Part shown: one piece after another, positions 5,067-19,230 of the stretch
Layout: each line of letters opens with the position of its first letter
Numbering within the stretch: the stretch's first letter is position 1
From: a virus
Reading direction: 5' to 3' (one strand)
DNA: 21,027 nucleotides
Virus record (IMG/VR): IMGVR_UViG_3300024346_007492
Coordinates: 1-21,027 of that record
The notes under the pieces: generated by a model
Told to the model about the DNA's origin: nothing
The model's database searches: none
What the model saw: the letters and a program-made list of their open reading frames with translations, nothing else
Program-made: the position numbers and the translations under genes

Positions 5067-5081
5067 TAAACTTATTTATTT

Positions 5082-5116
5082 AAAAAATACTCACTAATTT
5101 GGTGGGTATTTTTTTT
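5082..5116 (+). terminator. Rho-independent terminator
   Basis: A-rich arm plus TACTCAC at 5082-5094 pairs with GTGGGTATTTTTT at 5102-5114 (13 pairs, one G-U), across a 7-nt loop TAATTTG, and continues into a run of eight T. It lies 16 bases after the stop of the gene at 4305-5066 and separates it from the next glycan unit. It is the only strong terminator visible in the window. Confidence 0.85.
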
Positions 5117-5126
5117 GTCCAAAATA

Positions 5127-5158
5127 TTTGGAAAATTGTAAAAAATATCGTAATTTAG
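5127..5158 (+). promoter_or_regulatory. Weak candidate Bacteroidota-type promoter after the terminator
   Basis: TTTG at 5127-5130, 20 nt, then TAATTTAG at 5151-5158, one base from the TAnnTTTG consensus. The spacing is the same as in the stronger promoter before the portal. Some promoter is expected here because a terminator lies directly upstream. The start codon follows after only five bases, which would give an almost leaderless transcript, so the call is weak. Confidence 0.25.
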
Positions 5159-5163
5159 TAAGT

Positions 5164-5892
5164 ATGAAAATAGCATTATGCTTTAGCGGTCAAATTAGAA
5201 CCGGTGTTTTAACATCTAAAAATATTTTAAATTTTATAGGTGATATGATTGATGAGTGTGATATATTCGTTCATACGTGGGATAGTATAACTCAAACTTC
5301 ATCCGATTTGAGTATAGCTGGTGTTCCTTCAATTGAATCGGATTCTCTATTTGAACAATTTTCAGATATATGGCAGCCTAAGAAAATGATAATTGAAAAT
5401 TATCAAAAATGGGTAAATGGGAATATACAAATAGAACCATTATTCCATTCTATTATGGAATGCAATAGGCTAAAAAAAGAAACAGGCAATTATTATGATT
5501 TTACTATAAAAATAAGACCTGATTTTATTTATAATCCATCATATCGATTAAGAGATGAATTGGAATTAATACTAAAATCGGATTATGAAAATACAATATA
5601 CACTTTGGATTTTACAAATTCTATGATTCATAATAAATTTGAAGATGTTCTTTGGATTGCAAAAACTGATATATTTGATATAGCTGTAAATTATTATTTT
5701 GAAAGATTACTAAACAACCAATCGGATTGGCAAATAGAAATGGCTAAGTTTTTAACTAAAAATAATATAACGTATAGAGGATTATTTAGTGGCAATCAAG
5801 GAGCACCATACAGATGGTATGACTTAAATGAAAAATGTAGAAATATTGAAGATTACGAAAGCGAGTGGTTGGGAATAAAAAATTTCTTATAA
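5164..5892 (+). CDS. Putative glycosyltransferase-like protein (RPD family), copy 2
   Basis: 242 residues from ATG 5164. The frame is open to a start at 5128, but the extra 12 residues precede the conserved first strand and add no family feature. It shares with the protein at 813-1514 an N-terminal strand with SG (MKIALCFSGQIRTG), an HTW motif (residues 37-39) and an IRPDF motif (117-121). The N-terminus is closer than copy 1 to the CFSGQxR opening seen in many surface-glycan cluster proteins. A sugar-transfer role is inferred from this and from neighbouring sugar-activation genes. No transmembrane segment is seen. It opens the rightward transcription unit after the terminator, followed 22 bases later by the large fusion enzyme. 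Confidence 0.57.
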   Translation: MKIALCFSGQIRTGVLTSKNILNFIGDMIDECDIFVHTWDSITQTSSDLSIAGVPSIESDSLFEQFSDIWQPKKMIIENYQKWVNGNIQIEPLFHSIMECNRLKKETGNYYDFTIKIRPDFIYNPSYRLRDELELILKSDYENTIYTLDFTNSMIHNKFEDVLWIAKTDIFDIAVNYYFERLLNNQSDWQIEMAKFLTKNNITYRGLFSGNQGAPYRWYDLNEKCRNIEDYESEWLGIKNFL

Positions 5893-5914
5893 TTATATTA
5901 AATAGGTTACAAAT

Positions 5915-7822
5915 ATGAAAACAATAATAAAACCTTGGGGAAAGGAAGAATGGTTAGAATTAAATGATGCATATTGTTATAAACGAATATACATCAATGC
6001 AGGTTACAAAACCTCATATCAATATCATAATTTGAAAAGAGAAACAAATTTCATTATATCAGGAGAAGCTGAAATTTGGTTAGAAAACGATGAAGGTGTA
6101 GTTGAAAAGAAAATTATGAAAGCCGGTGAATACTTCAATGTTACACCTCCCAAAAAACATAGAGTTATTGCACTAACCGATATTATCTTACAAGAAGTAT
6201 CAACTCCCGAAGTAGATGATGTTATTAGAATTGATGATGAATTTGCAAGAGCAAATGGTAAAATAGAAGGCGAACATCAAACACCTGCCGTATTAATATT
6301 GGCAGCTGGATTAGGAACTCGATTGGGAAATCTAACCAAAGAAATCAATAAGGCTTTACTACCAATTAACAATCGTGCAATTATTTCACATATAATTGAT
6401 AAGTTTCCAAAAGAATATGAATTTATCATAGCAATTGGTTATAAAGGAGATTCAGTTAGAGAATATTGTGAATTGGCTTTTCCAACACATAAATTTACTT
6501 TTGTAGAAATTGATAATGTAGATGGATACGCTTCGGGTCCAGGCTATTCGGCATTACAATGTAAATCTTATCTACAAAGACCATTTTATATAGCAACTTG
6601 TGATTGTTTAATAGATTCGCCAATGCCACACTTAGATGGTAATTGGTTGGGAATACACCCGACATCATATCCTGAAAAATATTCAACTGTACAATTAAGT
6701 GGAAATGATATCATCCGTTATTCTAATAAAAATGAGAACGGATATGATATGGCATTTATAGGATTGGCTGGAATATGGGATTATGGGGTGTTTTGGGAGC
6801 AATTGGAGGATAATATCGTAGAAGGTGAAATAGTATCAGCATTTAAAACTCCATCGAACTACCCTACCTTTAAAGCAAAAAAATTGAAATGGTTGGATAC
6901 CGGTAATTTAGATGATTTGAATAAAACTAAAGAATACCTAAATGATAAGCCACTTTCTTTACAAAAGGATAATTCGGAAATAACATATAAAGAAGGTAAT
7001 GCATTTATAAAATTTACTCCAAATAAATCAGTATTAGATAACCGAATTATTAGAGCTAAAGAATTAGGAAATAAAATACCTGATAACTTCAAATATACTA
7101 ATAACTTTATATCATATAAATGGCAAGAAGGAAGTACATTATATGAAATCGATATGTTTGAAGTATATGTTAAGTTTTTGGAAGAACTAAAATCTAACAT
7201 ATCAACTCAATCACCAAATTCAGTTGAACATATTAAGAAATTTTATGTAGATAAAACAAATGAACGTTTGAATTTATTTATAAATAAAAATAATATAAAT
7301 TACTATGTAGAAAGCCATAATATAAATGGTATAGATTATCCATCTATGGAATCTATATTTTCTAAAATAGATTTTAAACAATTTGAATCAAACCCGTTTT
7401 ATCCGGCATTTCACGGTGATTTACAATTTGATAATATTGTATATAATTTAGGACAAAGGAAATTTACATATATTGATTGGAGAGAATCATTTGGTGGATA
7501 TACGAATGGTGGAGATATTTACTATGATTTAGCAAAAATGTATGGTGGATGTATTATACCATATGATAAAATGAAAAACGAAGATAATATTACATTCGTT
7601 CAAGGTGATTATTCTGTAACATATTCTTATAGTGTATCTTCGGATTTAACAAAATTCAAAGATGTGTATGAAGAATGGATAATAAATAATGGATTCGATT
7701 TAAACAAAGTTAAATTACTAACTGCTATTATATTTTTAAATATGTCACCATTACATGATGATAAATTTTCAAAAATGTTATGGTATAAATCAATAGAAAT
7801 GCTATATGATTACAATAAATAG
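5915..7822 (+). CDS. Cupin / sugar nucleotidyltransferase / APH-type kinase fusion
   Basis: 635 residues with three domains. Residues 1-120: a cupin like the C-terminal part of type II mannose-6-phosphate isomerases, starting KPWGKEEW, with SYQYHNLKRETNFIISGEAE and a GEYFNVTPPKKHRV segment. Residues 124-345: a sugar-phosphate nucleotidyltransferase with LAAGLGTRLGNLTKEINKAL (129-148, Lys146), a central TCDCLID and WLDTGNLDDL (326-335). Residues 350-635: an aminoglycoside/choline kinase-like domain with HGDLQFDN (His500, Asp502, Asn507), IDWRE (Asp521) and GDIYYDLAK (Asp538). Kinase plus nucleotidyltransferase suggests phosphorylation of a free sugar or alcohol followed by activation to an NDP form, as in AmgK/MurU or LicA/LicC pairs, but in one chain. 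The substrate is unknown. The end overlaps the next gene by 17 bases. Confidence 0.82.
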   Translation: MKTIIKPWGKEEWLELNDAYCYKRIYINAGYKTSYQYHNLKRETNFIISGEAEIWLENDEGVVEKKIMKAGEYFNVTPPKKHRVIALTDIILQEVSTPEVDDVIRIDDEFARANGKIEGEHQTPAVLILAAGLGTRLGNLTKEINKALLPINNRAIISHIIDKFPKEYEFIIAIGYKGDSVREYCELAFPTHKFTFVEIDNVDGYASGPGYSALQCKSYLQRPFYIATCDCLIDSPMPHLDGNWLGIHPTSYPEKYSTVQLSGNDIIRYSNKNENGYDMAFIGLAGIWDYGVFWEQLEDNIVEGEIVSAFKTPSNYPTFKAKKLKWLDTGNLDDLNKTKEYLNDKPLSLQKDNSEITYKEGNAFIKFTPNKSVLDNRIIRAKELGNKIPDNFKYTNNFISYKWQEGSTLYEIDMFEVYVKFLEELKSNISTQSPNSVEHIKKFYVDKTNERLNLFINKNNINYYVESHNINGIDYPSMESIFSKIDFKQFESNPFYPAFHGDLQFDNIVYNLGQRKFTYIDWRESFGGYTNGGDIYYDLAKMYGGCIIPYDKMKNEDNITFVQGDYSVTYSYSVSSDLTKFKDVYEEWIINNGFDLNKVKLLTAIIFLNMSPLHDDKFSKMLWYKSIEMLYDYNK

Positions 7823-8450
7823 AGATACAAAAATATATGGTTCTTTAAGCGAAAGAGCTGGTAGTATGGGATGTAAATTCTTTAATACGGCATTTGAAAG
7901 ACATGGCATAAATTCAGTATATAAATCGTTTTCAGTAAATAATATATCAAAGGCGCTTATATCCGCACAATACTTAGGATTTTCTGGTTGCGCAATATCA
8001 ATGCCATTTAAAGTTACTGCATTCAGTTTAATGGATGAAGTAGATAATGCGGCTAAAAAAGTAGGTAATATCAATACTGTTTTAATGACTTCGGATACGA
8101 TGATTGGTTATAATACCGATTACTATGCCGCATTAAAGCTTATAACCCATTATAACAAAGGATTTGATACTTTATATGTTTTAGGTAATGGTGGATTAGC
8201 AGCATCGGTTAAAGTGGCTGCGAGTGAATTGGGATTGAGTGTTGAAAATATTGTTAGGGATAATTGGGATACATTATATACATTAAAAAATAAATTTATT
8301 TTCAATTGTACACCGCTTACAATAGTAACAGATTCAACAAACACATATGTAGATTGTTTAGTTGAAAGTGAAAGTGGGACTATGTTACATAGAGAACAAG
8401 CTAAACATCAATTTAAAATATACACAGGCATAGATTATGAAAACACCTAA
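7806..8450 (+). CDS. Shikimate dehydrogenase (AroE)-like protein
   Basis: 214 residues, shorter than usual AroE (about 270) but with all landmarks in order: TKIYGSLSERAG at the start, GCAISMPFK with Lys69 in the place of the catalytic lysine, NINTVL (88-93), GYNTDYYAA with Asp105, the nucleotide-binding loop VLGNGGLAASV (125-135), FNCTPL for the usual NxTPxG, and a C-terminal MLHREQAKHQFKIYTG that fits the MLxxQxxxQFxxWTG ending. It should bind NAD(P) and oxidise or reduce a hydroxyl on a ring or sugar-like substrate. The usual N-terminal SxS substrate-binding serines are only partly kept (SLSERAG), so shikimate may not be the substrate. It overlaps the genes on both sides (17 and 14 bases) and lies in a sugar-activation run. 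Confidence 0.75.
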   Translation: MITINRDTKIYGSLSERAGSMGCKFFNTAFERHGINSVYKSFSVNNISKALISAQYLGFSGCAISMPFKVTAFSLMDEVDNAAKKVGNINTVLMTSDTMIGYNTDYYAALKLITHYNKGFDTLYVLGNGGLAASVKVAASELGLSVENIVRDNWDTLYTLKNKFIFNCTPLTIVTDSTNTYVDCLVESESGTMLHREQAKHQFKIYTGIDYENT

Positions 8451-9378
8451 ATACTTTATATGTCCAATGTCTAAGCAAATTGTAGATTCTGTATTGGAAT
8501 TACAATCTGATAGATTTGGATTATTACCAACTCGAAGGCAAATCGATTTTGATGGAGGATATGTAAATGGATGGGATACTACTACATTTCATAAATATGT
8601 CAGAAGCAAAAGTGATGTTGTTTTGGAAAGAGACCACTCCGGTCCAAACCAAGGAAAAATTGAAGATGATGGATTTCTATCATATGTTAATGATGCAAAA
8701 TATTTTGATATAATTCATATTGACCCTTGGAAAATTGTAGTAGATGATAAATCGATTGGTATAGCTCAAACATTCGATACTATGAATTATCTATATCATA
8801 TAAATCCTAATTTAAAATATGAAATTTTAACCGAAGAAGCAATTATTCGTATTGAAGATTTTGAGTTGAATAGTATATTAACATTTTTAAATGATAATTT
8901 AAAAGAAGAAATATTTTCAAATATAGAATTTGTTGTAATACAATCTGGTGTTGGATTAGATTTAGTTAATATGAAAAATTCAGGCAAATTTAATTTACAA
9001 AGATTAAAATCTATGGTTGAAATTTGTAAACGATTTGATAAAAAAACCAAAGAGCATAATGGTGATTATTTAACCAATGAGGAATTAGAAATTAGATTTA
9101 ATTCAGGCGTTGATAGCTTAAATATAGGACCTGAAATTGCACAAATACAAACATTAACATATTTAGAACATATGAGTGAAAACCAAATTGATGAATTTTA
9201 TCAAATTTGTTTCGATTCTAAAAAATGGGAAAAATGGGTTAAGAGTGATTTTGATATAAATGATAAACGTAAATTAATACAAGTATGTGGGCATTATTGT
9301 TACGATTTATATGAATTACCAAACATCGATTCAGTCATAAAAGAAAATATACAAAATAAATTAAATAGTTTACCATAA
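8437..9378 (+). CDS. GatZ/KbaZ-like TIM-barrel protein
   Basis: 313 residues. Motifs recall the non-catalytic subunit family of class II tagatose-bisphosphate aldolases: LPTRRQIDFDGG near residue 30, ERDHSGPNQG (64-73, for the GGDHLGPN pattern), IIHIDPWK (92-99), EHNGDYL (206-212, for HGTDYQ) and NIGPEIAQIQT (229-239, for VGPALTFA). An aldolase-type barrel acting on a sugar phosphate, or an accessory to one, is the best reading. No GatY/KbaY catalytic partner is in the window, so it may act alone on another substrate. It overlaps the AroE-like gene by 14 bases and its stop shares one base with the next start (TAATG), so it belongs to the same translated run. Confidence 0.56.
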   Translation: MKTPKYFICPMSKQIVDSVLELQSDRFGLLPTRRQIDFDGGYVNGWDTTTFHKYVRSKSDVVLERDHSGPNQGKIEDDGFLSYVNDAKYFDIIHIDPWKIVVDDKSIGIAQTFDTMNYLYHINPNLKYEILTEEAIIRIEDFELNSILTFLNDNLKEEIFSNIEFVVIQSGVGLDLVNMKNSGKFNLQRLKSMVEICKRFDKKTKEHNGDYLTNEELEIRFNSGVDSLNIGPEIAQIQTLTYLEHMSENQIDEFYQICFDSKKWEKWVKSDFDINDKRKLIQVCGHYCYDLYELPNIDSVIKENIQNKLNSLP

Positions 9379-9746
9379 TGAGTAATAAAAAAATATTAGC
9401 ATTTGATTTGGATGATACACTATGTTTTCGTCCAAAAGAAAAGGAATCATTGGGAATAGATAAGTACCATTATTGTGAACCAATACAAGAAATGATAGAT
9501 TTATCAAACTCTTTATACGATAAAGGACACATAATATATATTTATACCGCAAGAGGTATGCATACATTGAATGGAGATGTTAAGGAAATCTACTCAAAGT
9601 TATATGATATAACATTGAATAGTTTAGAAAAATGGGGTGTAAAGCATAACGGATTATATATGGGTAAAATACATTATGATTTACTTATAGATGATAAAGC
9701 AATGGGATTAGATGAAGCAAAAATAAAATTAAAACAATTATTATGA
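9378..9746 (+). CDS. Small HAD-family phosphatase
   Basis: 122 residues. The HAD motif I is FDLDDTL with Asp10 and Asp12, motif II is the Thr57 of TARG, and motif III/IV is seen as Lys97 followed by LLIDDKA with Asp105-Asp106. There is no cap domain, as in small capsule- and LPS-locus phosphatases (KdsC or HAD-IIIC-like proteins), which usually dephosphorylate a sugar phosphate. It starts inside the previous stop (TAATG) and its own stop overlaps the next ATG (ATGA). The context suggests that it removes a phosphate from an intermediate made by the kinase, AroE-like and GatZ-like genes upstream. Confidence 0.8.
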   Translation: MSNKKILAFDLDDTLCFRPKEKESLGIDKYHYCEPIQEMIDLSNSLYDKGHIIYIYTARGMHTLNGDVKEIYSKLYDITLNSLEKWGVKHNGLYMGKIHYDLLIDDKAMGLDEAKIKLKQLL

Positions 9747-9868
9747 AAAACTGGCCAATAATTTCCTTCTTTGTAAAGTTATACGAAGAACGAAAAAGAA
9801 AAAAAAGATTTAAGAAAAAATTAGAAGAACTTAAAAAAAGAGACCCATTTATCTACAAAAGTTTCTAA
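9743..9868 (+). CDS. Small basic protein, 41 residues
   Basis: Starts with MKNWPIISFFVKLYEERKRK, has a short hydrophobic N-terminus (residues 4-13) followed by a strongly basic amphipathic stretch of Lys, Arg and Glu (residues 15-33), and ends in RDPFIYKSF. The ATG overlaps the HAD stop (ATGA), as expected for a translated gene, and the frame has no other use. It could sit at a membrane or bind nucleic acid, but I do not recognise it. It closes the glycan transcription unit, 40 bases before the large precursor gene. Confidence 0.55.
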   Translation: MKNWPIISFFVKLYEERKRKKRFKKKLEELKKRDPFIYKSF

Positions 9869-9881
9869 TCTTTAATAAAAA

Positions 9882-9894
9882 GATATTTATATAT
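9882..9894 (+). promoter_or_regulatory. TATATTTAT-like box upstream of the large precursor gene
   Basis: GATATTTATATAT, one base from the recurring TATATTTATAT, ending about 15 nt before the GTG start at 9909. Between the two lies AGGGGAT, a ribosome-binding site that fixes this unusual start codon. I see no convincing -33 element at the expected distance. Candidate promoter for late or virion genes. Confidence 0.38.
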
Positions 9895-9908
9895 AAAAAT
9901 AGGGGATA

Positions 9909-12900
9909 GTGGATAAACCAATAGTTAAAAAAACAATAGTAGTATATTCAGGCCGTTTTCAACCTTTTCACAAGGGACATTACGCTGCGTATCAAAAATT
10001 AGTGTCAAAATTTGGCGTTAACAATGTTTACATTGGTACATCGGATAAAAGCGATGGTGGTAAATCTCCATTTACTTTTAAAGAAAAAGTTGTAATAATG
10101 GGTAAAATGTTTGGAATCCCTCCAAGCAAAATAGTACAAGTATCAAACCCATATGCACCAAAAGAAATACTTTCCAAATTCGATGGTAAAACAACGGCAT
10201 ACATTGCGGCTGTCGGTGATAAGGATGCTAGTAGATTAGCAGGTAAATACTTTAAGCCATATAATGGTAAAACGGGATATGGTTACGATGAGATTGGTTA
10301 TACTTATATAATACCATCTGAATCAAATCCAATTAGCGGAACTGATGTAAGAAAATGGTTGAGCTCGGATGATGCTGAAAAATTATTCTTAAAAGCATAT
10401 CCAAAATTCGATAAAGAAATTTTTAAAATGATAACCAACAAACTAATTAAAGAGGAACTTGCGACAGGCTATCCATCTAAAGAAGATGTTAAGAAAATAC
10501 AAAAGAAAAATGATGCGATTCGTTCAGTAGCAACTACCGATGATTCGTATGTGTATGACCCGATAGCTGAACAAATTGCAAAATTAATATCCGAAACTGA
10601 TAGTTTTATAGATGAGTATTTCTTAGAAGAAGAGCCAAATCCTGTAATGGATAAGGAAATTAATTACACTGCAGCTGATGGTAAAAAGAAAAAAATTACT
10701 GTTAGGGGAGCGTTACGATTACCAAAAGACCACGAAGCACATATTCAAGCAACTAAATTAGTTGGACCTGATGACGCACCGGCTAACGAACCAAAGGGTA
10801 AAGCGGCAACTCAATCAGCAAAACCCGCTGAACCTGGACAACCTGTTAAGAAAGACCAAACGGCGCAAGGTAAAGTTGATAAAGAAAAAGGTGGAGCAGC
10901 TGATACGCCGGAAGCACCAAATCCTCAAAAATTAAAAGGAGCAGAATTAAAATCAGATGCAGAAGATAGAGTTTCAAAAGAAAGAAAAGCTGAAGAGTTA
11001 AAAACTGCATTAGACAATGAAATTAAAGATTTAAATAAAGATGAACAAGAGTTCATTCAAAATGGAGAACATAAGCAAGGTTCTAAATTTATGAACTCTT
11101 TGAAAGATGGTATAAAAAAAGTAGCTGATACCAAAGTTGTTAAAGCAATTGGACACGTTTTACAACATAAAGGTGAAATGATAAAAGGCGCTTGGGATGG
11201 ACATAAAGCATTAGCTAGTGGGCAAAAGATTGGTTCTACTAAAAATAAAGAAACCGGCGAATGGGAATACTCCGATGAAAAAAGAAAAGAGCAAGTACAT
11301 CATATAAAACATTTTTATAAAGATTTAGGTCTTTTAGTTGCTAGTGTTGCATTGGGTGGTGGATTAGCCGCTGGTGCTAAAGCAATAGCAGGTGGAGCAG
11401 GTTTAGGTGGAGCGGCATCTGCAACAGCAAGTGGTGCAGTTGGGGCATTTACTCACGGAGTAGGTGGTTTTGCCGCACACTTAGGTAAAGATGCCATTAA
11501 ACACGTTGCATTGGAATCTATGGGTATGGGTGGTACGCAAGCCGCTCTTGGTGGAGCTGGATTGGCAGGTGCAACGATGGGATTATTAGAAATACGTTCC
11601 CTAATTACCGAAGAAGAAGAAATGAATTCTGAAAAATATATTCAGAATATAATAAATAAAATGGCAGAAAAAATGGAAACATTTGAAATGTCAGATGAGC
11701 AATTATTGCAATCCATTAAATCATATAAACAAAGCAAAAATTTCGGAGATTTAGTTAAAGAAGATGTAAATGTTGATGTTGATAATGGTGATACTGTTTT
11801 AATGGGTAAATTCAAAAATAAGAAAGTACAAATTAAAAGTATTGGAAAAGATGACCACGGAATGCCAACAATTAATGGTAAACAAGCTACAACGTTCAGA
11901 ACCCTAAGTGAAATCCAAAAAGGATTTTTTAAAGGTAAAATGAAAATTGGTGGACAGCCCGTTGAAGTAGAAGTTGAATTGATTGGTGTTGATAATAAAA
12001 ATAGAGATTTTGTTACAAAGGTAGTTGGTGTTGATAAAAAATATCAGAGTAAATTACCGATAGGTTCTACATTACCTATACCAGCTAGAGTATTTAGACA
12101 CGGAGGTTGGGTAAAAATAAAAGTACCATCCGCATTTAACGAAGTGGGAGTTGGTGATTGGCATTTCAAAGCAATTATGAAATTGTGGGATAGAGCTAGT
12201 TCATTTGGTAGAAAGAAAATTGGAGCAGCAGTTTGTGCAAATCCAAACGCTAATAGGAGAGAAGTAGAAAGAGAATTGAGAAATAGTGATTATGAAGAAA
12301 TAACCGATGCTTCTGTTAAACTAGGATTACTAAAAGAAGAAATGCCAGCTACTCCACAAAAAAAAAGTAAAGGTAGAGTTATAGGTGAATTTATAAAATT
12401 TGCAAAAGATAGATTACGTTTAATAGGTTTACCATTTAATATTAAATTGGTAAAAGATGGTGAGTTTGCTACAACATTTAAATCATTTGGTGGATACGAC
12501 CCGGTTAATAATGATATATTTGTATATGTTACCAATAGAAGTACTCCGGATATCCTAAGAACATTGGCACACGAATTAGTTCATCTTAAACAAAGACAAG
12601 ATGGATACATTGGTGGACCAGAAGATGGAGCAACAGGCTCTGATGTTGAGAATGAAGCAAATGCAGCAGCTGGAATTTTATTAAGAGATTTTGGTAAACT
12701 TAATGGAAATATTTACGAATCAAAAGAAATTATAACGGAAGGTGGGGCATATGGACATATGAACCATCCATTTGATATTTCGATGAACCTTACATTTAGC
12801 GATTTAAAAAAAATTATTAATAATGCGTTAGATGGTAAGTTGGGAGTTGTTAGAGAAAAAACCGATGGACAGGCATTAGCAATCAGTTGGAAAAATGGTA

Positions 12901-13937
12901 AATTAATTGCGGCTCGTAACAAATCACATTTAGCAAATGGTGGAGCAAACGCTTTAGATATGAGTGCATTGGCATCTAAGTTTGCCGGAAGAGGTGAATT
13001 GAGTGATGCATATAATTTCGCAATGAGAGATTTATCAACTGCTATTAATGGATTGGGTGAATCTGAAAAGAAAAGTATATTCAAAGATGGTTCAGCATTT
13101 TGTAACTTAGAAGTAATCTATCCACAAAATGCAAATGTGATTCCTTATGGACAATCTTTATTAGTATTTCATAATGTAGTTGAATACGATGAAAAAGGTA
13201 ATGCAGTTGGAAGTGTAAGGGGTGCCGAAAGTAAATTAGCATCTATGATTAAACAAATAAATGCACACGTACAATCACAATATACATTGCAAGGCCCTCC
13301 AATTACAAAACTTCCAAAAGATGAAAAGTTAAGTTCTCAAAAAGGAAAATTTAATAGTATGTTATCTAAACTACAATCTGAATTTGGTTTATCCGATAAA
13401 GATGGTGTAGCTGAATATCATTACGCTTGGTGGATGAAATTTGTTAATAATTCTAAAAAGAATTTAACAAAATTAGAAAAAGAAGGATTGGCAAGAAGAT
13501 GGGCATTTGATAATAAATCTTTTGGTATTAAATCTATAACTGATGAAGATGCTAGAAAATGGGCAGATGGTGTAGATAAGGATGCTAAAGATAAAATAAT
13601 GAAAGGCAACGTTCGTAAATTTGAAGATATCTTTTTAGGAGTTGGAGCAGAAGTATTATCATTTATGAGTTCAGTATTAACGGCTCAGCCTGATAAGGCA
13701 TTACAATCCATTAGAGCATCATTAGAATCATCGATATCCGATATCAAAAGTGGTGGTAGTGTAGCTCAAATAAAGAGATTGGAAAAGGAATTAGCTAGAT
13801 TAAATGCTATTGGCGGATTTGAAAAATTAGTTCCAAATGAGGGATTGGTATTTTTCTATAAAGGTAACACATATAAATTAACAGGAACATTTGCTCCTTT
13901 AAATCAAATTTTAGGAATTTTTAAGTTTGGGAGATAA
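9909..13937 (+). CDS. Giant multidomain virion precursor: nucleotidyltransferase, metallopeptidase and ligase-like domains
   Basis: 1342 residues, GTG start preceded by AGGGGAT. Residues 1-180: a HIGH-type nucleotidyltransferase (NMN adenylyl/cytidylyltransferase fold) with SGRFQPFHKGH (14-24) and ISGTDVRKW (142-150). Residues 250-470: charged linker. Residues 472-565: Gly/Ala-rich and hydrophobic, possibly membrane-active. Residues 566-806: helical part, then a small beta module (MGKFKNKKVQIKSIG). Residues 811-940: a zinc metallopeptidase with HELVH (His888, Glu889, His892) and a likely third ligand Glu914 or Glu916. Residues 945-1342: ligase-like, with KTDG (984-987) as nucleotidyl-lysine motif, NLEVIYP near 1067, EGLV (1311-1314) and YKLTG (1322-1326). 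Sequences LIKE (182), LITE (568), LLKE (810) and IITE (944) separate the parts and look like T4-type prohead-protease sites. I infer a packaged precursor. The roles of the released enzymes are unknown. Confidence 0.72.
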   Translation: MDKPIVKKTIVVYSGRFQPFHKGHYAAYQKLVSKFGVNNVYIGTSDKSDGGKSPFTFKEKVVIMGKMFGIPPSKIVQVSNPYAPKEILSKFDGKTTAYIAAVGDKDASRLAGKYFKPYNGKTGYGYDEIGYTYIIPSESNPISGTDVRKWLSSDDAEKLFLKAYPKFDKEIFKMITNKLIKEELATGYPSKEDVKKIQKKNDAIRSVATTDDSYVYDPIAEQIAKLISETDSFIDEYFLEEEPNPVMDKEINYTAADGKKKKITVRGALRLPKDHEAHIQATKLVGPDDAPANEPKGKAATQSAKPAEPGQPVKKDQTAQGKVDKEKGGAADTPEAPNPQKLKGAELKSDAEDRVSKERKAEELKTALDNEIKDLNKDEQEFIQNGEHKQGSKFMNSLKDGIKKVADTKVVKAIGHVLQHKGEMIKGAWDGHKALASGQKIGSTKNKETGEWEYSDEKRKEQVHHIKHFYKDLGLLVASVALGGGLAAGAKAIAGGAGLGGAASATASGAVGAFTHGVGGFAAHLGKDAIKHVALESMGMGGTQAALGGAGLAGATMGLLEIRSLITEEEEMNSEKYIQNIINKMAEKMETFEMSDEQLLQSIKSYKQSKNFGDLVKEDVNVDVDNGDTVLMGKFKNKKVQIKSIGKDDHGMPTINGKQATTFRTLSEIQKGFFKGKMKIGGQPVEVEVELIGVDNKNRDFVTKVVGVDKKYQSKLPIGSTLPIPARVFRHGGWVKIKVPSAFNEVGVGDWHFKAIMKLWDRASSFGRKKIGAAVCANPNANRREVERELRNSDYEEITDASVKLGLLKEEMPATPQKKSKGRVIGEFIKFAKDRLRLIGLPFNIKLVKDGEFATTFKSFGGYDPVNNDIFVYVTNRSTPDILRTLAHELVHLKQRQDGYIGGPEDGATGSDVENEANAAAGILLRDFGKLNGNIYESKEIITEGGAYGHMNHPFDISMNLTFSDLKKIINNALDGKLGVVREKTDGQALAISWKNGKLIAARNKSHLANGGANALDMSALASKFAGRGELSDAYNFAMRDLSTAINGLGESEKKSIFKDGSAFCNLEVIYPQNANVIPYGQSLLVFHNVVEYDEKGNAVGSVRGAESKLASMIKQINAHVQSQYTLQGPPITKLPKDEKLSSQKGKFNSMLSKLQSEFGLSDKDGVAEYHYAWWMKFVNNSKKNLTKLEKEGLARRWAFDNKSFGIKSITDEDARKWADGVDKDAKDKIMKGNVRKFEDIFLGVGAEVLSFMSSVLTAQPDKALQSIRASLESSISDIKSGGSVAQIKRLEKELARLNAIGGFEKLVPNEGLVFFYKGNTYKLTGTFAPLNQILGIFKFGR

Positions 13938-13938
13938 A

Positions 13939-13960
13939 TTATATATATATGTATATATAA
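13939..13960. repeat. AT-only inverted repeat
   Basis: TTATATATA (13939-13947) and TATATATAA (13952-13960) are perfect inverted copies around TATG, just after the stop of the large precursor gene and 21 nt before the next start. The stem has no G-C pairs and no T-run after it, so it is a poor terminator. Its right half (GTATATATAA) could instead be a variant of the TATATTTAT box. Low-complexity chance is possible. Confidence 0.35.
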
Positions 13961-13981
13961 AAGGTTATAAATAAATAAAAT

Positions 13982-14650
13982 ATGGCAAAGAGAAAAAGCT
14001 TTGAAGAAAAAAATAATTACATTCATCCGACTCGTAAACTAATTATAGATACGGTATTTGGTAGGACGGATGAAAATCAAAAAACATTTGGTTACGAAAA
14101 AGAAACTGACAAACAAAGAGAAGTTGGTGAAACGTGGGTAGATGCGGATGGAAAAGAATGGGAACAAAAAGAAGGTTATAAGATAACAGTTTCCCAAATG
14201 GATGAGGTTAGACAATATTTAGATAAATTAAATAATTGTCAATCCGAAAATTGCGATACTATAAAATATAGTAACGCAGATAAGAAACTAATTCGTAAAA
14301 CGGGAATGTGTGTAACTTGTTTAAGAAAGTTTGAGCAAGGATTAAAAGATGATGGAACGTATCCATTTTATGAAGATTATAAAATAACTAATAATCAATT
14401 ATCATATGTTATTGATTTGAAAGCTCAATTCGAAGAAGGATTAAGAGCAGTATCACAAACAATGGAATTTATCAATGAAGATGGTAGTATTCAAAAATGG
14501 CATTATGATATTGATGTTGAAAAAGTAAAAGAAGATTTACAAAATGATATTGATGGTGCAACCGAAGCAATTGAAGCTCTGTTGGAAAGGAAAGCAGCAT
14601 TAGAAGATAAGTTACGAGAATTAAATCATTCAGAGCTTATAAAAAATTAA
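13982..14650 (+). CDS. Unidentified Cys4 protein with C-terminal coiled coil
   Basis: 222 residues. It has four cysteines in two pairs, Cys86/Cys91 and Cys110/Cys113 (CVTC), consistent with one structural zinc site, and a charged coiled coil at about residues 176-218. The N-terminus is basic (MAKRKSFEEKNNY). I do not recognise a family. It lies two genes before the large terminase, the position where many phages have the small terminase subunit. A coiled coil would suit an oligomeric terminase small subunit, but there is no helix-turn-helix that I can identify, so this is only a possibility. Four bases separate it from the next ATG. Confidence 0.55.
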   Translation: MAKRKSFEEKNNYIHPTRKLIIDTVFGRTDENQKTFGYEKETDKQREVGETWVDADGKEWEQKEGYKITVSQMDEVRQYLDKLNNCQSENCDTIKYSNADKKLIRKTGMCVTCLRKFEQGLKDDGTYPFYEDYKITNNQLSYVIDLKAQFEEGLRAVSQTMEFINEDGSIQKWHYDIDVEKVKEDLQNDIDGATEAIEALLERKAALEDKLRELNHSELIKN

Positions 14651-14654
14651 AATT

Positions 14655-14813
14655 ATGAAAAAATTATTGAATTTTAAAAACATTGCTATTGTAGCATTGA
14701 TTGTGTATGTATTATTACAATGGTTTAACCCAGGTGGAGTTATGCCAGGCGGAAGAACTATCAGAATTGATGGTAAAAATATGAAATTATCAAACATGAT
14801 ATTGATACGTTAG
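14655..14813 (+). pseudogene. Membrane-anchor N-terminal fragment of a frame-broken gene
   Basis: 52 residues: MKKLLNF, a single transmembrane helix (about residues 9-24, IAIVALIVYVLLQWF), then NPGGVMPGGRTIRIDGK. After residue 41 the frame runs on for 11 residues and stops at TAG. The adjacent frame opens immediately at base 14777 (a TAA ends at 14776) and continues as KYEIIKHDIDTLEVV to 15304. One extra A in the run at 14775-14779 would join the two as DGKKYEIIKHD, which reads as natural protein. The two pieces are therefore most simply one gene (about 216 residues) interrupted by a one-base loss, real or from sequencing. Confidence 0.6.
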
Positions 14814-15304
14814 AAGTAGTTAAAACAAAAGTAGTAACTAAAAAAGGCGATGATATCTATCACGAAACAATCGTAGAAAAAGAAGTAATCATTCCTACAA
14901 TAATTGATACCGCAGCATTATTAAAAGATTACTATTCAAAAGTATTATACAAAGATGTATTAATATTGCCTGATTCATTAGGAACAGTTGCTATTACCGA
15001 TACTATTTCACAAAACAAAATTTTAGGTAGAACTTTCAATGCAAGTGTAAAAGAAAGAACTATTAAAGAAACTATGATAGTTAAAGAGCCAGCAAAAACA
15101 CAATTATATTATGGTTTAAATGGTGGATTTAATAAAGCTGATTTAGTTTCTGCTGTTGGTGCAGGATTAATTTTAAAAACTAAAAAAGATAAAATATATC
15201 AATTTACATTGGGAGTAAATAATAGAACTACTGATGGAACAACCGGTTCATTTTCTCCATATGTAGGATTTGGTACTTATTGGAAAATAAAAGTTAAAAA
15301 ATAA
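14777..15304 (+). pseudogene. C-terminal fragment of the same gene: extracytoplasmic beta-rich domain
   Basis: 175 residues in the frame one base behind the fragment at 14655. It starts KYEIIKHDIDTLEVVKTKVV, continues with a Lys/Glu/Thr-rich stretch, and ends in alternating hydrophobic strands, YYGLNGGFNKADLV through SPYVGFGTYWKIKV, like short outer-surface beta proteins. The only start-like codon in this frame is a TTG at 14966, which would cut the conserved-looking KHDIDT region, so independent translation is unlikely. The stop overlaps the terminase ATG by one base. With the N-terminal anchor it would be a single-pass membrane protein with its bulk outside the cytoplasm, perhaps for lysis or superinfection exclusion. 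No family is recognised. Confidence 0.58.
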
Positions 15305-16914
15305 TGAGTGTACAAGGGCAACCTAAAAAAACACTAAAAGAAATCATCTCCGATGAGTATAAGAAGTGTGCGTTAGACCCGATATACTTTATGAAAAAGT
15401 ATTGTGTCATTCAACACCCTACTCGTGGAAAAATTCCATTTCATCTATATCCTTTTCAGGAAAATTGTTTAGATGATTTTAAAGATAATAGATTCAATAT
15501 TATTCTTAAATCCCGCCAATTAGGTTTATCAACCCTATCGGCGGGCTTTATACTTTGGAAGATGATATTCAACCAAGACTTCAATGCGTTGGTTATTGCA
15601 ACTAAAGTAACTGTTGCAAAGAACTTAGTAGAGAAGGTTAGGGTTATGCACGATTTACTTCCTATTTGGTTAAGAGATGGTTCAACGGCGGCATCCGAAG
15701 ATAATAAACTATCACTTAAATTAAAGAATGGTTCGCAAGTAAAAGCAATCGCATCTTCACCTGATGCAGGACGTTCGGAAGCCCTATCCCTATTAGTTGT
15801 GGATGAGGCTGCATTCATTAGAGATATCGATGATATTTGGTTATCAGCACAATCAACTCTATCAACGGGTGGTAGTGCAATTATTCTTTCTACACCAAAT
15901 GGTGTGGGTAACTTCTTTCATAAAACTTGGGTAGCCGGTGAAGCGGGGCAAAATGGATTCAATTGTATTAATCTACATTGGACTGTACACCCTGAAAGAA
16001 ATCAAGCATGGAGGGATGAGCAAACTCGAATCTTAGGAGCAAAAGGAGCATCGCAAGAATGTGATTGTGACTTTATCGGTTCGGGTGATACTGTAATCGA
16101 CCCGGCATTATTAACTTGGTATAAGGAAACATATGTAATGGAACCTGTTGAAAAGAGAGGTTTCGATGGAAATCTTTGGATATGGGAACATCCTAATTAC
16201 AATAGACAATATATGATATCTGCCGACGTGGCGAGAGGCGATGGTACGGATTATTCTACGTGTCAAATAATTGATATAGAAGATTCATCGCAAGTTGGAG
16301 AATATAGAGGAAAGATAGATACAAAAGATTTTGGTAATTTTTTAACTGCATTATCAACCGAATATAATAACGCATTATTAGTAATTGAAAATGCTAACGT
16401 TGGTTGGGCTACAATTCAGCAAGTAATCAATAGGGGATATCCTAATTTATTCTATATGAGTAATGATTTACAATATGTGGATACCGAAAGACAAATGAGT
16501 AACAAATATTATAGAGAAGAAAGAAGTATGGTTGCTGGATTTTCTACGACATCCAAAACTCGTCCTCTTATCATTTCAGCATTAGATAACTATATGAAGG
16601 ATAAAGATATCTTAATTCGTTCTAATAGATTGATAGATGAATTATTTACATTCATTTGGAATGGTGGTAGAGCAGAAGCTATGAAGGGATACAATGATGA
16701 CTTAACAATGGCATTAGGTATTGGATTGTGGGTTCGTAATACCGCACTTCGTTTAAGACAAGAGGGAATAGATTTGACAAAGAGTATGTTAAACTCAACT
16801 ACGATACATAATGATACGGGTGTTTATGCTGCAAATTGGCAAAATCAAAAAAATCCATACGAAATGCATTTAGGAAAAGGGGAAACCGAAAACCTAACTT
16901 GGTTGCTAAAGTAA
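15304..16914 (+). CDS. terL: Terminase large subunit (T4 gp17-like)
   Basis: 536 residues, the ATP-driven motor and nuclease of DNA packaging. N-terminal ATPase: PFHLYPFQ adenine-binding motif (45-52), Walker A KSRQLGLST (69-77), Walker B LLVVDE (163-168), coupling motif STPNG (196-200). C-terminal nuclease: SADVARGDGTDYS with Asp308, VIENANVGW with Glu362, and YNDDLTMAL with Asp465/Asp466, the three acidic metal-binding positions. The form of the Walker A (lacking the usual GK) and the nuclease motifs are those of T4-like terminases. It starts on the last base of the preceding stop. Its product works with the portal encoded at 17489-19216. Confidence 0.95.
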   Translation: MSVQGQPKKTLKEIISDEYKKCALDPIYFMKKYCVIQHPTRGKIPFHLYPFQENCLDDFKDNRFNIILKSRQLGLSTLSAGFILWKMIFNQDFNALVIATKVTVAKNLVEKVRVMHDLLPIWLRDGSTAASEDNKLSLKLKNGSQVKAIASSPDAGRSEALSLLVVDEAAFIRDIDDIWLSAQSTLSTGGSAIILSTPNGVGNFFHKTWVAGEAGQNGFNCINLHWTVHPERNQAWRDEQTRILGAKGASQECDCDFIGSGDTVIDPALLTWYKETYVMEPVEKRGFDGNLWIWEHPNYNRQYMISADVARGDGTDYSTCQIIDIEDSSQVGEYRGKIDTKDFGNFLTALSTEYNNALLVIENANVGWATIQQVINRGYPNLFYMSNDLQYVDTERQMSNKYYREERSMVAGFSTTSKTRPLIISALDNYMKDKDILIRSNRLIDELFTFIWNGGRAEAMKGYNDDLTMALGIGLWVRNTALRLRQEGIDLTKSMLNSTTIHNDTGVYAANWQNQKNPYEMHLGKGETENLTWLLK

Positions 16915-16931
16915 TTTTTATATATTTATAT
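16899..16931 (+). promoter_or_regulatory. TATATTTATAT promoter-like box with TTG element
   Basis: TTG at 16899-16901, 19 nt, then TATATTTATAT at 16921-16931, 17 nt before the ATG at 16949. This is the best copy of the recurring box and the only one with a Bacteroidota-like -33 TTG at proper distance. The TTG lies inside the end of the terminase gene. It would start a unit of the CWKGY protein and perhaps the portal. Confidence 0.42.
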
Positions 16932-16948
16932 GTTGAAACTATTATAAT

Positions 16949-17431
16949 ATGAAGCTAATAAATCTAATTCCACTAAAAGAAATGGAAAATCCTTGTTGGA
17001 AAGGATATGAAATGGTAGGTACTAAGGATAAAAATGGTAAAGAAGTACCAAATTGTGTTCCTATTAAAGAAGAAACAACTGATAATGAATATGATGAATT
17101 AGATGTTGAGCCTGAAGAAATTGAAGATTTCATTGAATTTCTAAAAGCGTACAAAAATACTTTAGCTGAAGCAAATTGTAATTGTGTATATGAAGCAGAA
17201 TATCAGGGTAGAAACGTACAATTGGGTAAACCAATGCAAGGTGATATTAAAAAATTCAAAGTATATGTAAAGAACCCAGCAGGCAATGTTGTTAAGGTAA
17301 ACTTTGGGCAGAAAGGGATGAAAATTAGAAAATCAAATCCTGCGGCTAGAAAATCATTTAGAGCAAGAATGAATTGTGATAATCCAGGTCCAAGACACAA
17401 AGCAAACTATTGGAGTTGCAGAAAATGGTAA
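16949..17431 (+). CDS. CWKGY-motif small phage protein, possible head core component
   Basis: 160 residues. The N-terminus NPCWKGYEMVGTKDKNGKEV followed by PNCVP (residues 14-36) is a module I know from many T4-like marine phage proteins. The C-terminal part has FKVYVKNPAGNVVKVNFG and ends KSFRARMNCDNPGPRHKANY then WSCRKW, another recurrent module with paired cysteines. Between them is an acidic stretch (residues 41-66). Two short tags of LKE and IKE form stand at 9-11 and 39-41, as in the giant protein at 9909-13937. It lies between terminase and portal and has its own TATATTTATAT box. Structural or scaffold role is inferred from position. The biochemical function is unknown. Confidence 0.65.
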   Translation: MKLINLIPLKEMENPCWKGYEMVGTKDKNGKEVPNCVPIKEETTDNEYDELDVEPEEIEDFIEFLKAYKNTLAEANCNCVYEAEYQGRNVQLGKPMQGDIKKFKVYVKNPAGNVVKVNFGQKGMKIRKSNPAARKSFRARMNCDNPGPRHKANYWSCRKW

Positions 17432-17435
17432 TTAA

Positions 17436-17467
17436 TTTGTTAATATCAAATAATTTCCATATCTTTG
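17436..17467 (+). promoter_or_regulatory. Bacteroidota-type promoter upstream of the portal gene
   Basis: TTTG (17436-17439), a 20-nt spacer, and TATCTTTG (17460-17467), which matches the Bacteroidota primary-sigma consensus TTTG / TAnnTTTG exactly, with the start codon 21 nt further on. The intervening bases are AT-rich without a Shine-Dalgarno site, also common in that phylum. It is the main sequence evidence for the host group. Confidence 0.6.
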
Positions 17468-17488
17468 AATTAAAATATAAAATAATAA

Positions 17489-19216
17489 ATGGCAACAGAT
17501 AAATCATTTTTCGGTAGGTTACAAAAACTATTTTCAACTAATACAATAGTTCGTAAAACAAAACAAGGTATCAAAGTAATAGATACCGATGAGTATCAAG
17601 GATTAACAACAAATCTAATAGATAGGTACATGCGTATGAAAACTCCACAATATAGTGGTGGTTTGATAGAATCCGCAATGGCTTATCAACAAGTTAGAAT
17701 TGATTTGTTTAGAGATTATGATGGAATGGATAATGACCCAATTTTATCATCAGCATTAGATATTTACGCAGATGAAGCAACCGTAAAGAATGAATTAGGC
17801 GATGTACTTAAAATAAATTGTGCAAACGAAAATACAAAAGAAATTCTTAGAAATCTTTTTTATGATATTTTAAATATTGAATTTAATCTATGGCCTTGGA
17901 GTAGAAACTTAGTAAAATATGGTGATTTCTTTTTACATTTAGAAATAGCTGAAGAATTGGGTATCGTAGGTGTACAACCTTTATCGGTATATGAAACATC
18001 TCGAGTTGAAGGGTTTGATGCACAAAATCCACAAAGAGTTAAATTCGTATATGCACCATATCAGAATCCAAATAGTGCAATGGTAACGGCTTCTTCAAAA
18101 AGAGAATTTGAAAACTACGAAATAGCTCACTTCCGTTTATATTCCGATTCAAACTTCCTACCTTACGGAAAATCTATGATTGAAGGTGGTAGAAGAGTTT
18201 GGAAACAATTAATGTTAATGGAAGATGCGATGTTAATCCATCGTATTATGAGAGCACCTGAAAAGAGAATATTTAAAGTGGATGTTGGCAATATTCCACC
18301 AACTGAAGTTGATAACTACATGCAAAAAATTATCAACTCATCTAAAAAAGTTCCTTTCTTAGACCAAGCTACGGGTGAATATAACTTAAAATACAATATT
18401 CAAAACTTAATTGAAGATTATTATATGCCAGTTCGTGGTAGTGATAATGGTACTTCAATCGACACCCTAAAAGGTTTAGAATATAATATGATTGATGATA
18501 TCAACTACTTAAAAGGTAAGTTGATGGCTGCATTAAAAATACCAAAAGCATTTTTAGGATACGAAGAAGATGTTAGTGGTAAAGCTACATTGGCAGCACA
18601 AGATGTTAGATTTGCAAAAACAATAGAAAGAATTCAGAAAGTATTGGTATCGGAATTAACTAAGATAGCAATTGTTCACTTATATGCACAAGGATTAGAT
18701 GGTGAGGATGAATTAGATTTTCAATTAGAATTAACAATACCATCTAAAATTTATGAGCAAGAGAAAGTTGAATTATATACATCTAAAATAGCATTAATTC
18801 AACAAATGCAACAAACTAAAATGTTCTCTAAAAAATGGATGTACGATGCTATTATGGATATGACTCCTGAAGAGCAAGATGAGTTAACAGTAGATGTTAT
18901 CGAAGATACAAAACAAACATTCCGTTTAACATCAATTGAAACACAAGGTGTTGACCCGGCAAAAGAAACCGGAGCAGGAGAACCAACCAATGTAGAAGAA
19001 GAAATTCAAAAAATAAAAGAAGAATTGGAGGAAGAAGGTAAAGTTGGTAGACCAAAAGATGTTGTTAGATATGGCAAAGATGACCATCATTTAGGAAGAG
19101 ACCCGTTAGGAATTAAAACTTTAAAGCAAAAAGCTCAGAGAGAATCTAAGGAAATATTTAAAGATATGATGGGTAACAAAAAGACTATTTTAATGGAAGA
19201 TTTGGATAAAAAGTAA
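17489..19216 (+). CDS. Portal vertex protein (T4 gp20-like)
   Basis: 575 residues, close to the usual length of T4-like portals (about 520-560). The middle part matches the family: WPWSRNLVKYGDFFLHLEI, IAHFRLYSDSNFLPYGKSMI, then HRIMRAPEKRIFKVDVGNIP, and GLEYNMIDDINYLKGKLMAA followed by KIPKAFLGYE, typical of the gp20 clip and stem. It forms the dodecameric ring through which DNA enters and on which the head is built. The C-terminal tail (about residue 490 on) is acidic with IKEELEEEGKVGRPKD and a GKDDHHLGRDPLG segment, longer than usual. The ATG has a Bacteroidota-type promoter 21-50 nt upstream and no Shine-Dalgarno sequence. Confidence 0.93.
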   Translation: MATDKSFFGRLQKLFSTNTIVRKTKQGIKVIDTDEYQGLTTNLIDRYMRMKTPQYSGGLIESAMAYQQVRIDLFRDYDGMDNDPILSSALDIYADEATVKNELGDVLKINCANENTKEILRNLFYDILNIEFNLWPWSRNLVKYGDFFLHLEIAEELGIVGVQPLSVYETSRVEGFDAQNPQRVKFVYAPYQNPNSAMVTASSKREFENYEIAHFRLYSDSNFLPYGKSMIEGGRRVWKQLMLMEDAMLIHRIMRAPEKRIFKVDVGNIPPTEVDNYMQKIINSSKKVPFLDQATGEYNLKYNIQNLIEDYYMPVRGSDNGTSIDTLKGLEYNMIDDINYLKGKLMAALKIPKAFLGYEEDVSGKATLAAQDVRFAKTIERIQKVLVSELTKIAIVHLYAQGLDGEDELDFQLELTIPSKIYEQEKVELYTSKIALIQQMQQTKMFSKKWMYDAIMDMTPEEQDELTVDVIEDTKQTFRLTSIETQGVDPAKETGAGEPTNVEEEIQKIKEELEEEGKVGRPKDVVRYGKDDHHLGRDPLGIKTLKQKAQRESKEIFKDMMGNKKTILMEDLDKK

Positions 19217-19230
19217 TAATCCACAATAAA

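What the first reader, a model, noticed from the sequence alone, without database searches (positions are those of the whole stretch)
9909..13937. Possible protease-processed precursor: [L/I]-x-E sites lie exactly at domain borders
In the 1342-residue protein, LIKE ends at residue 182 (end of the nucleotidyltransferase), LITE at 568 (end of the Gly/Ala-rich hydrophobic part), LLKE at 810 (before the metallopeptidase) and IITE at 944 (before the ligase-like domain). LISE at 229 is a further match. T4 gp21 cuts head proteins after [L/I]-x-E. Cutting here would release four or five separate proteins, each one domain. A phage polyprotein made to be packaged and matured in the capsid would be unusual. 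Caution: the motif is short and the protein is rich in Glu.
Basis: partly seen in the sequence, partly recalled or inferred. Interest (0 to 1): 0.85.

Follow-up and report, generated by a model that had tools for sequence, protein, structure and literature searches.

The report
Phage cargo polyprotein with protease tags
A virus of bacteria seems to make many small enzymes as one long chain, with cut sites for its own capsid protease at the joins, so that a mixture of separate proteins could be freed inside the virus head and delivered into the next cell.

Summary
The 1342-residue ORF and the named sites are real. By count alone [L/I]xE is at chance (13 against 12.2). Homologues make the case. 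50 proteins with both end modules show 26 module arrangements. For 10 modules (picked from 22 after seeing flanks), 76 of 79 distinct left contexts have Glu at the border and 66 of 79 have [LIVMF]xE (background 5%); two wider scans give Glu in 38 of 38 and 37 of 37. Codons vary, so selection acts on protein. Breakpoints elsewhere in three genomes show no excess. A gp21-family (S77) protease lies 7-10 kb downstream in 12 of 16 contigs and in a 99.98% identical sister contig; the capsid protein has LLDE|A in 7 of 7. 18 of 50 lack the metallopeptidase module yet keep the tag before the ligase, so self-cutting is not the general mechanism. In cyanophages, solo relatives of two modules (NMNAT with a T4-like targeting peptide; DUF3008) are reported or labelled as virion proteins. 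Best reading: cargo polyprotein packaged in the prohead and cut there. Cleavage is not shown. About 8-9 products, not 4-5; site 229 is doubtful; this clade lacks an N-terminal tag.

The parts
9909..13937 (+). 1342-aa modular polyprotein ORF
   Evidence: 50 relatives with both end modules, 26 arrangements
9909..10454 (+). Module 1 (residues 1-182): nucleotidyltransferase of the NMN-adenylyltransferase type, ends in LIKE
   Evidence: phrog_395 9e-13; PF01467 in 21 of 21 aligned members; nearest solved structures are NMN adenylyltransferases, E 7.5e-7 over part of the module
10443..10454 (+). Tag LIKE (182)
   Evidence: in other clades the module after it differs and the tag is KLNE, KINE or CINE
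10455..10631 (+). Spacer residues 183-241 with YDPIAE, LISE (229) and LEE (241); 241 is the better border
10632..11612 (+). Residues 242-568: small TAADGK domain, Ala/Pro-rich linker, Gly/Ala-rich hydrophobic part; ends in LLE (561) and LITE (568)
11601..11612 (+). Tag LITE (568)
11613..11762 (+). Residues 569-618: helical module, ends in LVKE
11751..11762 (+). Tag LVKE (618)
   Evidence: the module after it has Glu at the border in 14 of 14 distinct contexts and 37 of 37 in the wider scan
11763..11912 (+). Residues 619-668: small module DxNVDVDxGD...GMPTINGKxATTFR, found in 61 proteins here, ends in TLSE
11901..11912 (+). Tag TLSE (668)
   Evidence: the module after it has the tag in 5 of 8 distinct contexts at the tested place
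11913..12143 (+). Residues 669-745: GKMKIGG module, ends in AFNE
12132..12143 (+). Tag AFNE (745)
   Evidence: the module after it has Glu at the border in 10 of 10 distinct contexts, [LIVMF]xE in 8
12144..12338 (+). Residues 746-810: DWHFK helical module, ends in LLKE; also the C-terminal part of a 172-aa head-cluster ORF in L011 and L019
   Evidence: 62% identity over 78 residues in L011
12327..12338 (+). Tag LLKE (810)
12339..12719 (+). Residues 811-937: zincin-type metallopeptidase module, HELVH at 12570-12584, ends in IYE
   Evidence: phrog_87 3e-4; HExxH pattern in 45 of 46 modules; alignment; its place in the order differs between relatives
12729..12740 (+). Tag IITE (944) before the ligase-like module
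   Evidence: [LIVMF]xE in 21 of 21 distinct contexts
12741..13934 (+). Residues 945-1342: nucleic-acid-ligase-like module with KTDG at 12858-12869
   Evidence: alignment; model pLDDT 81.5; of the 15 best Foldseek rows 13 are RNA ligases and 2 are one putative ATP-dependent DNA ligase, but E is 0.1-0.5
16949..17431 (+). Second modular tagged head-cluster protein: MKLINLIPLKE | CWKGYE module ... PIKE | ... KVYVKNP module
   Evidence: both modules are fused to the NTase in phage Melnitz
20422..21027 (+). Third modular tagged protein (starts with DUF3008; runs off the window); modules change after VVKE in relatives
   Evidence: Pfam DUF3008 5e-7; a DUF3008 relative, 77% identical over 56 residues, is labelled virion protein in phage S-SCSM1
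17489..19216 (+). T4-type portal protein gp20 (context: head cluster)
   Evidence: PF07230 1e-72
15304..16914 (+). Large terminase (context)

Best explanation
The ORF is a cargo polyprotein of a T4-like phage. It is made with the head genes and taken into the prohead. There the prohead protease (gp21 family, S77) cuts after the Glu of [LIVMF]-x-E tags that mark the module borders. This frees about eight or nine small proteins, among them an NMNAT-like enzyme, a zinc metallopeptidase and a ligase-like enzyme, which stay with the DNA and enter the next cell. Modules move between phages and between genes as cassettes bounded by tags. Shown: the tags, their tracking of module borders, conservation at protein rather than DNA level, the protease gene, the same tag in the capsid protein, and virion detection or labelling of solo relatives of two modules in other phages. 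Inferred: uptake, cleavage, injection and the function of each piece.
For: 26 module arrangements among 50 proteins with both end modules. Border Glu in 76 of 79 and [LIVMF]xE in 66 of 79 distinct left contexts of 10 modules, background 5.1% (these 10 of 22 modules were picked). Wider scans, best 80 loci each and partly the same contigs: Glu within five positions of the border in 38 of 38 and 37 of 37 contexts, strict motif 26 of 38 and 27 of 37. Breakpoint test: [LI]xE near 220 of 759 breakpoints against 119+-10 at random, z 10.2; [LI]xD z -0.3, [LI]xG 0.3; other xxE classes z 2.8-5.7. Rest of three genomes: no excess, z -0.3, 206 breakpoints. P3 uses 12 different codons. Within module cores [LI]xE is rare: 74 against 174 expected over eight modules, while [LI]xD is 210 against 211 (sums; homologous copies are not independent). 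S77 protease in 12 of 16 contigs; the 4 misses end 2.3-5.4 kb past the gene; protease in sister contig L005, PF03420 1.5e-29. Capsid protein has LLDE|A in 7 of 7 loci where a T4-like propeptide would end (inferred). T4 Alt is cut by gp21 at ITE-6 and LTE-619 (PMC5694885, passages). Solo relatives carry T4-IP-like N-termini: MKSFLQFLKE|A (S-SCSM1), MKKFSAFLTE|A (S-RIM8); T4 ipII and ipIII have MKTYQEFIAE|A. NMNAT-like or cytidylyltransferase proteins reported in virions of S-SCSM1, S-SZBM1, S-CREM2 (passages).
Against: No proteomics was found for this phage or a close relative, so neither cleavage nor packaging is shown. The window protein and its clade start MDKPIVKK-like with no N-terminal targeting tag. 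Raw [LI]xE count is at chance. In the 3-genome test the head region itself shows no excess (24 of 70 breakpoints, z 0.0; small and mixed set). Strict [LIVMF]xE fails in 13 of 79 contexts, 12 of 38 and 11... see counts 26 of 38 and 27 of 37, though Glu is present in nearly all. In one search other Glu patterns and [LI]xN, [LI]xK also show weaker excess. A loose N-terminal tag count in one 245-kb relative shows no excess. Some [LIVF]xE lie inside modules (59, 827, 983, 1092) and would have to be shielded. The authors of two of the three virion proteomes (S-CREM2, S-SCSM1) note that such enzymes might be carried over from infected cells.
Confidence: 0.77

Rival explanations
1. An ordinary multi-domain (polyvalent) protein that acts uncut. 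The tag-like joints are only linkers or sites where recombination joins modules.
For: Polyvalent proteins with varied domain architectures are known, and some are transferred whole (PMC5512222, passages). No cleavage data here.
Against: Linkers need no fixed Glu with a hydrophobic P3 and a free P2. Codons at the joints vary, so there is no shared DNA joint. The same motif lies in the capsid protein and ends the targeting-like peptides of solo relatives. Module cores hold fewer [LI]xE than expected.
Confidence: 0.12
2. A prohead core protein like T4 gp22 or gp67: cut at many tags so that the pieces leave the head, with no delivery of enzymes.
For: T4 core proteins are cut into pieces by gp21 and most pieces leave (PMC7411985 and PMC5694885, passages). 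The ORF before the capsid gene, in scaffold position, is also full of tags.
Against: Modules keep enzyme motifs (HExxH in 45 of 46; invariant KTDG in 30 of 30). Solo relatives of two modules are reported or labelled as proteins of mature virions.
Confidence: 0.07
3. Self-processing by the embedded zinc metallopeptidase, as proposed for phage P1 DdrB.
For: The module is present with HExxH, and the idea is in print for polyvalent proteins.
Against: 18 of 50 proteins have no detected metallopeptidase module and all 18 keep [LIVMF]xE before the ligase. Window ORFs 16949 and 20422, and one relative of each, are tagged but have no match to the metallopeptidase profile. Zincins are not known for Glu-specific P1 cutting (recalled).
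Confidence: 0.03
4. Chance: a Glu-rich protein with a short motif.
For: Raw count is at chance in the window protein.
Against: with controls; rest-of-genome control flat.
Confidence: 0.01

Closest known systems
T4 internal proteins IPI-III and Alt, cut by prohead protease gp21
   Same: S77 protease in the head cluster, cut after a Glu with hydrophobic P3, N-terminal targeting-like peptides in solo relatives and in some clades, proteins delivered with DNA (delivery inferred here)
   Different: T4 proteins lose one or two propeptides and remain one protein; here the tags separate many modules of one chain, and the window clade has no N-terminal tag
Polyvalent proteins of phages and conjugative elements (Iyer et al. 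2017, PMC5512222)
   Same: Many enzyme domains in one chain, varied architectures, metallopeptidase module, in relatives a ParB-like module with a hit to a PLxRFG protein, genes near portal and terminase, predicted packaging
   Different: There release is ascribed to embedded peptidases or does not occur (passages); here the release sites look like those of the head protease and occur at borders also without the peptidase module
phiKZ-type and SPN3US head proteins with long propeptides (protease S80)
   Same: Several prohead-protease cuts per protein in ejection proteins, after A-x-E or S-x-E (passages)
   Different: There propeptides are removed; no interchangeable enzyme cassettes in the passages I read
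Gag/Gag-Pol and other eukaryotic virus polyproteins (recalled)
   Same: Analogy only: chain packaged and cut during particle maturation
   Different: No homology; protease is a separate gene here

Membership tests
T4 gp21 substrate (internal/ejection protein) | S77 prohead protease encoded by the phage | tested here: met
   12 of 16 contigs; L005 17729-18319. The window itself ends before the gene.
T4 gp21 substrate (internal/ejection protein) | [L/I]xE cleavage motif at the expected places | tested here: met
   Border tags; same motif in the capsid protein
T4 gp21 substrate (internal/ejection protein) | N-terminal capsid targeting sequence ending in a cut site | tested here: not met
   Window clade starts MDKPIVKK-like. 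Other clades have one (e.g. MNELSQFLVESILLE). So it is not filed as an IP-type protein; it may still be processed like one.
T4 gp21 substrate (internal/ejection protein) | Observed cleavage and presence in virions | not testable with these tools
   Published or labelled virion detection exists only for solo relatives of two modules
Polyvalent protein | Several unrelated enzyme and other domains in one chain encoded by a mobile element | tested here: met
   NTase, metallopeptidase, ligase-like and small modules
Polyvalent protein | Domains drawn from the published polyvalent domain pool | tested here: inconclusive
   Zincin HExxH module and, in relatives, a ParB-like module with a tblastn hit to a PLxRFG protein (3e-6); no comparison with the published alignments
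RNA ligase (C-terminal module) | KxDG nucleotidyl site and ligase fold | tested here: inconclusive
   KTDG invariant in 30 rows; of the 15 best Foldseek rows 13 are RNA ligases and 2 a putative DNA ligase, E 0.1-0.5, TM 0.15-0.25; best VIA Z 4.9, shared with Lon protease rows
NMN adenylyltransferase (N-terminal module) | GRFQPFHxGH and ISGTxxR motifs (recalled as typical), similarity to NadM | tested here: inconclusive
   PDB profile hit to archaeal NMNAT 7.5e-7 over positions 9-70 of the module profile only; NCBIfam far below the curated cut-off; activity not tested

The most novel reading that the evidence does not exclude
A plug-in delivery system: T4-like freshwater and marine phages keep several tagged polyproteins in the head cluster, into which any small effector can be inserted between two prohead-protease sites. 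The capsid protease acts as the general release step, so one gene loads a changing mixture of separate effectors into each virion. Modules often have a Met right after the tag, as if former genes were captured. This would be a phage counterpart of maturation polyproteins and a general rule for finding injected phage effectors.
Probability: 0.62. Interest if true: 0.88.

Novelty: new variant of a known kind. Interest (0 to 1): 0.78.

Why it matters
If true, prohead maturation in T4-like phages is also a release step for packaged enzyme mixtures, and the tag gives a simple sequence rule to look for injected effectors among the many unknown phage proteins. It would unite T4 internal proteins and polyvalent proteins, and help explain why NMNAT-like enzymes turn up in cyanophage virions. 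It can be tested at once by re-searching virion mass-spectrometry data for neo-N-termini.

Tried and rejected
Counting [LI]xE in the window protein alone: at chance, so it is no evidence. Loose N-terminal tag count over a 245-kb relative: no excess (108 of 294 genes against 102 of 270 in an internal stretch); only a narrow MI[KR]LxxLLxE family stands out by eye. Head-region breakpoints in three genomes: no excess (24 of 70, z 0.0). Structure model of residues 570-944: pLDDT 50, unusable. Ligase module against PDB by sequence: only weak ribosomal-protein hits that I take for chance; metallopeptidase profile: no peptidase among four weak hits. PADLOC: two weak hits in six proteins, none convincing. 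Rejected: chance, and self-cutting by the metallopeptidase as a general mechanism. Papers: no text holds Mel-JY01; four papers hold polyprotein, prohead protease and phage together, of which I searched two for terms (PMC5512222, PMC7689252) and saw nothing of this kind; one search found none; the ten listed (of 443) hold 'phage polyprotein' zero times. So 'not described' rests in one open-access library. I read passages of ten papers, no whole paper. Selections: 10 of 22 modules were counted; hits starting late in a profile, too near a protein start, or with similar left flanks were dropped before counting. The 26 arrangements are lists of detected modules, so missed detections may add some; 34 of the 50 proteins were in the non-redundant set.
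Full report
WHAT IS THERE. The window is a 21-kb virus record with a T4-type head cluster: large terminase 15304-16914 and portal 17489-19216 (PF07230, 1e-72). Upstream lies one open frame of 1342 codons, 9909-13937. Alone they prove little: [LI]xE occurs 13 times against 12.2 expected by shuffling.

HOMOLOGUES. A scan of viral contigs gave 275 stretches encoding relatives; the best 80 (75 loci) were kept. BLAST of their ORFs showed that the order of the parts is not fixed: the metallopeptidase lies after the DVD-type small module in the window, but before it in L033, L035, L046 and L052, among others. With 22 module profiles, 50 proteins holding both end modules fall into 26 arrangements of detected modules (missed detections may add some, and 34 of the 50 are in the non-redundant set). 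The N-terminal nucleotidyltransferase and the C-terminal ligase-like module stay; what lies between is exchanged.

TAGS FOLLOW THE BORDERS. In the flanks a Glu stands just before many modules whatever the module to the left. For 10 modules, chosen from the 22 after seeing that table, I kept only distinct left contexts: 76 of 79 have Glu at the border and 66 of 79 have [LIVMF]xE, against 5.1% per position in the same proteins. Two of these modules were then sought more widely (the best 80 loci of each, some from contigs already seen). Glu lies within five positions of the border in 38 of 38 and 37 of 37 distinct contexts; the strict motif in 26 of 38 and 27 of 37. A test without chosen modules points the same way: of 759 homology breakpoints in 47 non-redundant proteins, 220 have [LI]xE within 10 residues, against 119+-10 in shifted controls (z 10.2). 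[LI]xD, [LI]xG and [LI]xT show nothing; [KR]xE, [DE]xE, [ST]xE, [GA]xE, [LI]xN, [LI]xK and E-x-[LI] show weaker excess, z 2.8 to 5.7. Breakpoints elsewhere in three large relatives show no excess (35 of 206, z -0.3). The small mixed head-region set of the same three genomes shows none either (24 of 70, z 0.0); I take it as uninformative, not as support.

CONSERVED AS PROTEIN. At the 66 counted tags P1 is GAA or GAG and P3 uses twelve codons; the frequent S[VI]NE tag is written with twelve codon strings. P2 is free. In 13 near-colinear sequences, the window's included, P1 and P3 mostly stay while P2 changes at 229, 568, 668 and 944, and also at a few other sites. Inside module cores [LI]xE is rarer than expected (74 against 174 summed over eight modules; [LI]xD 210 against 211, E-x-[LI] 307 against 174; sums), although copies of one module are not independent.

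THE PROTEASE. Peptidase_S77 (gp21 family) is found in 12 of 16 related contigs, 7 to 10 kb downstream on the same strand. The other four end 2.3 to 5.4 kb past the polyprotein (coordinates). L005 is 99.975% identical to window 4152-20140 and has the gene at 17729-18319. The capsid protein of relatives has LLDE|A in 7 of 7 loci, where a T4-like propeptide would end (inferred). In T4, gp21 cuts Alt after ITE-6 and LTE-619, and removes propeptides from the capsid and internal proteins (PMC5694885, passages). T4 ipII and ipIII start MKTYQEFIAE|A.

SAME SYSTEM, OTHER GENES. ORF 16949-17431 and ORF 20422-21027 have relatives in which modules come and go at VNE, INE, VKE and LKE joints. One 87-residue module is shared by the two families (L028 and L068, 69% identity). 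Modules also cross between genes: the ParB-like module inside the polyproteins of L038 and L049 is a separate gene with an N-terminal tag in the 245-kb relative (53-62% identity); the CWKGYE and KVYVKNP modules of ORF 16949 are fused to the nucleotidyltransferase in Methylophilales phage Melnitz; Flavobacterium phage immuto carries DUF5661 and the SPADIEF-type module, with tags, in a separate gene.

VIRION EVIDENCE FROM RELATIVES. Papers on cyanophages S-CREM2, S-SZBM1 and S-SCSM1 report NMNAT-like or cytidylyltransferase proteins in CsCl-purified virions (passages of PMC10665884, PMC9146016, PMC9602691); the authors of the first and third warn of possible carry-over. In the S-SCSM1 record the NMNAT and a second protein are labelled virion protein. 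The NMNAT begins MKSFLQFLKE|A and matches the profile of module 1 (E 3e-7). The second is a DUF3008 protein (3.5e-7), 77% identical to the start of window ORF 20422.

FUNCTION OF MODULES. Module 1 is closest to NMN adenylyltransferases. Residues 811-937 are a zincin-type module (HExxH in 45 of 46). The C-terminal module has an invariant KTDG and a model of fair confidence; of its 15 best Foldseek rows 13 are RNA ligases and 2 are a putative DNA ligase, but at weak scores, and the VIA list mixes ligases with unrelated chains. So ligase-like is as far as I go. One module of relatives matches T4 RegB weakly (3e-4, below cut-off).

MECHANISM. Most likely: uptake into the prohead, cutting by the S77 protease after the tag Glu, release of about eight or nine proteins, ejection with DNA. 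The metallopeptidase is not needed: 18 of 50 proteins show no such module and keep the tag before the ligase. Weak points: no cleavage data, no N-terminal targeting tag in the window clade, and strict-motif exceptions. How the tagless clade would enter the prohead is unexplained.

VERDICT. Known parts (gp21 substrates, polyvalent proteins) are joined in a way I did not find described, hence a new variant of a known kind.

Noticed in passing
20141-20410 and L005 about 15990-16120: Window and L005 are 99.975% identical over 15,990 bases, then diverge sharply near 20140 (85% over 20311-20949), right before a small ORF: probably a recent recombination joint inside the head cluster.
   Followed up: no
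9378-9746: ORF directly upstream of the polyprotein with matches to phrog_1238 (named phosphoheptose isomerase, 3e-26) and phrog_415 (polynucleotide kinase, 7e-14); by eye a HAD-type phosphatase. With a ligase-like module it could hint at RNA end repair.
   Followed up: no
L166, L146, L153; window 16949-17431: Many modules begin with Met right after the tag Glu (E|MAKSDLD, E|MENPCWKGYEM), as if former separate genes had been captured behind a tag.
   Followed up: no
L308:2296-3717 (HSTV-1 gene 13): The CWxGYxxxG...VPNCVP module lies inside the annotated head maturation protease of the haloarchaeal tailed virus HSTV-1.
   Followed up: partly
L040:12896-13189 and relatives: The SPADIEF module weakly matches T4 endoribonuclease RegB (PF10715, 3e-4, below cut-off): possibly a packaged RNase.
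   Followed up: partly
L307:1598-2830 (HTVC008M gp127), L305:1354-2250 (S-RIM8 gp183): Marine relatives have a different protein with a KWDG site near or next to the NTase gene; no significant match to the window ligase profile.
   Followed up: partly
1497-8450: Upstream genes look by eye like nucleotide-sugar and sugar-nucleotidyltransferase genes on both strands (from the translations; not searched).
   Followed up: no
14966-15304: Short ORF with only a weak PHROG match (phrog_25644, 0.004) between the polyprotein and the terminase.
   Followed up: no
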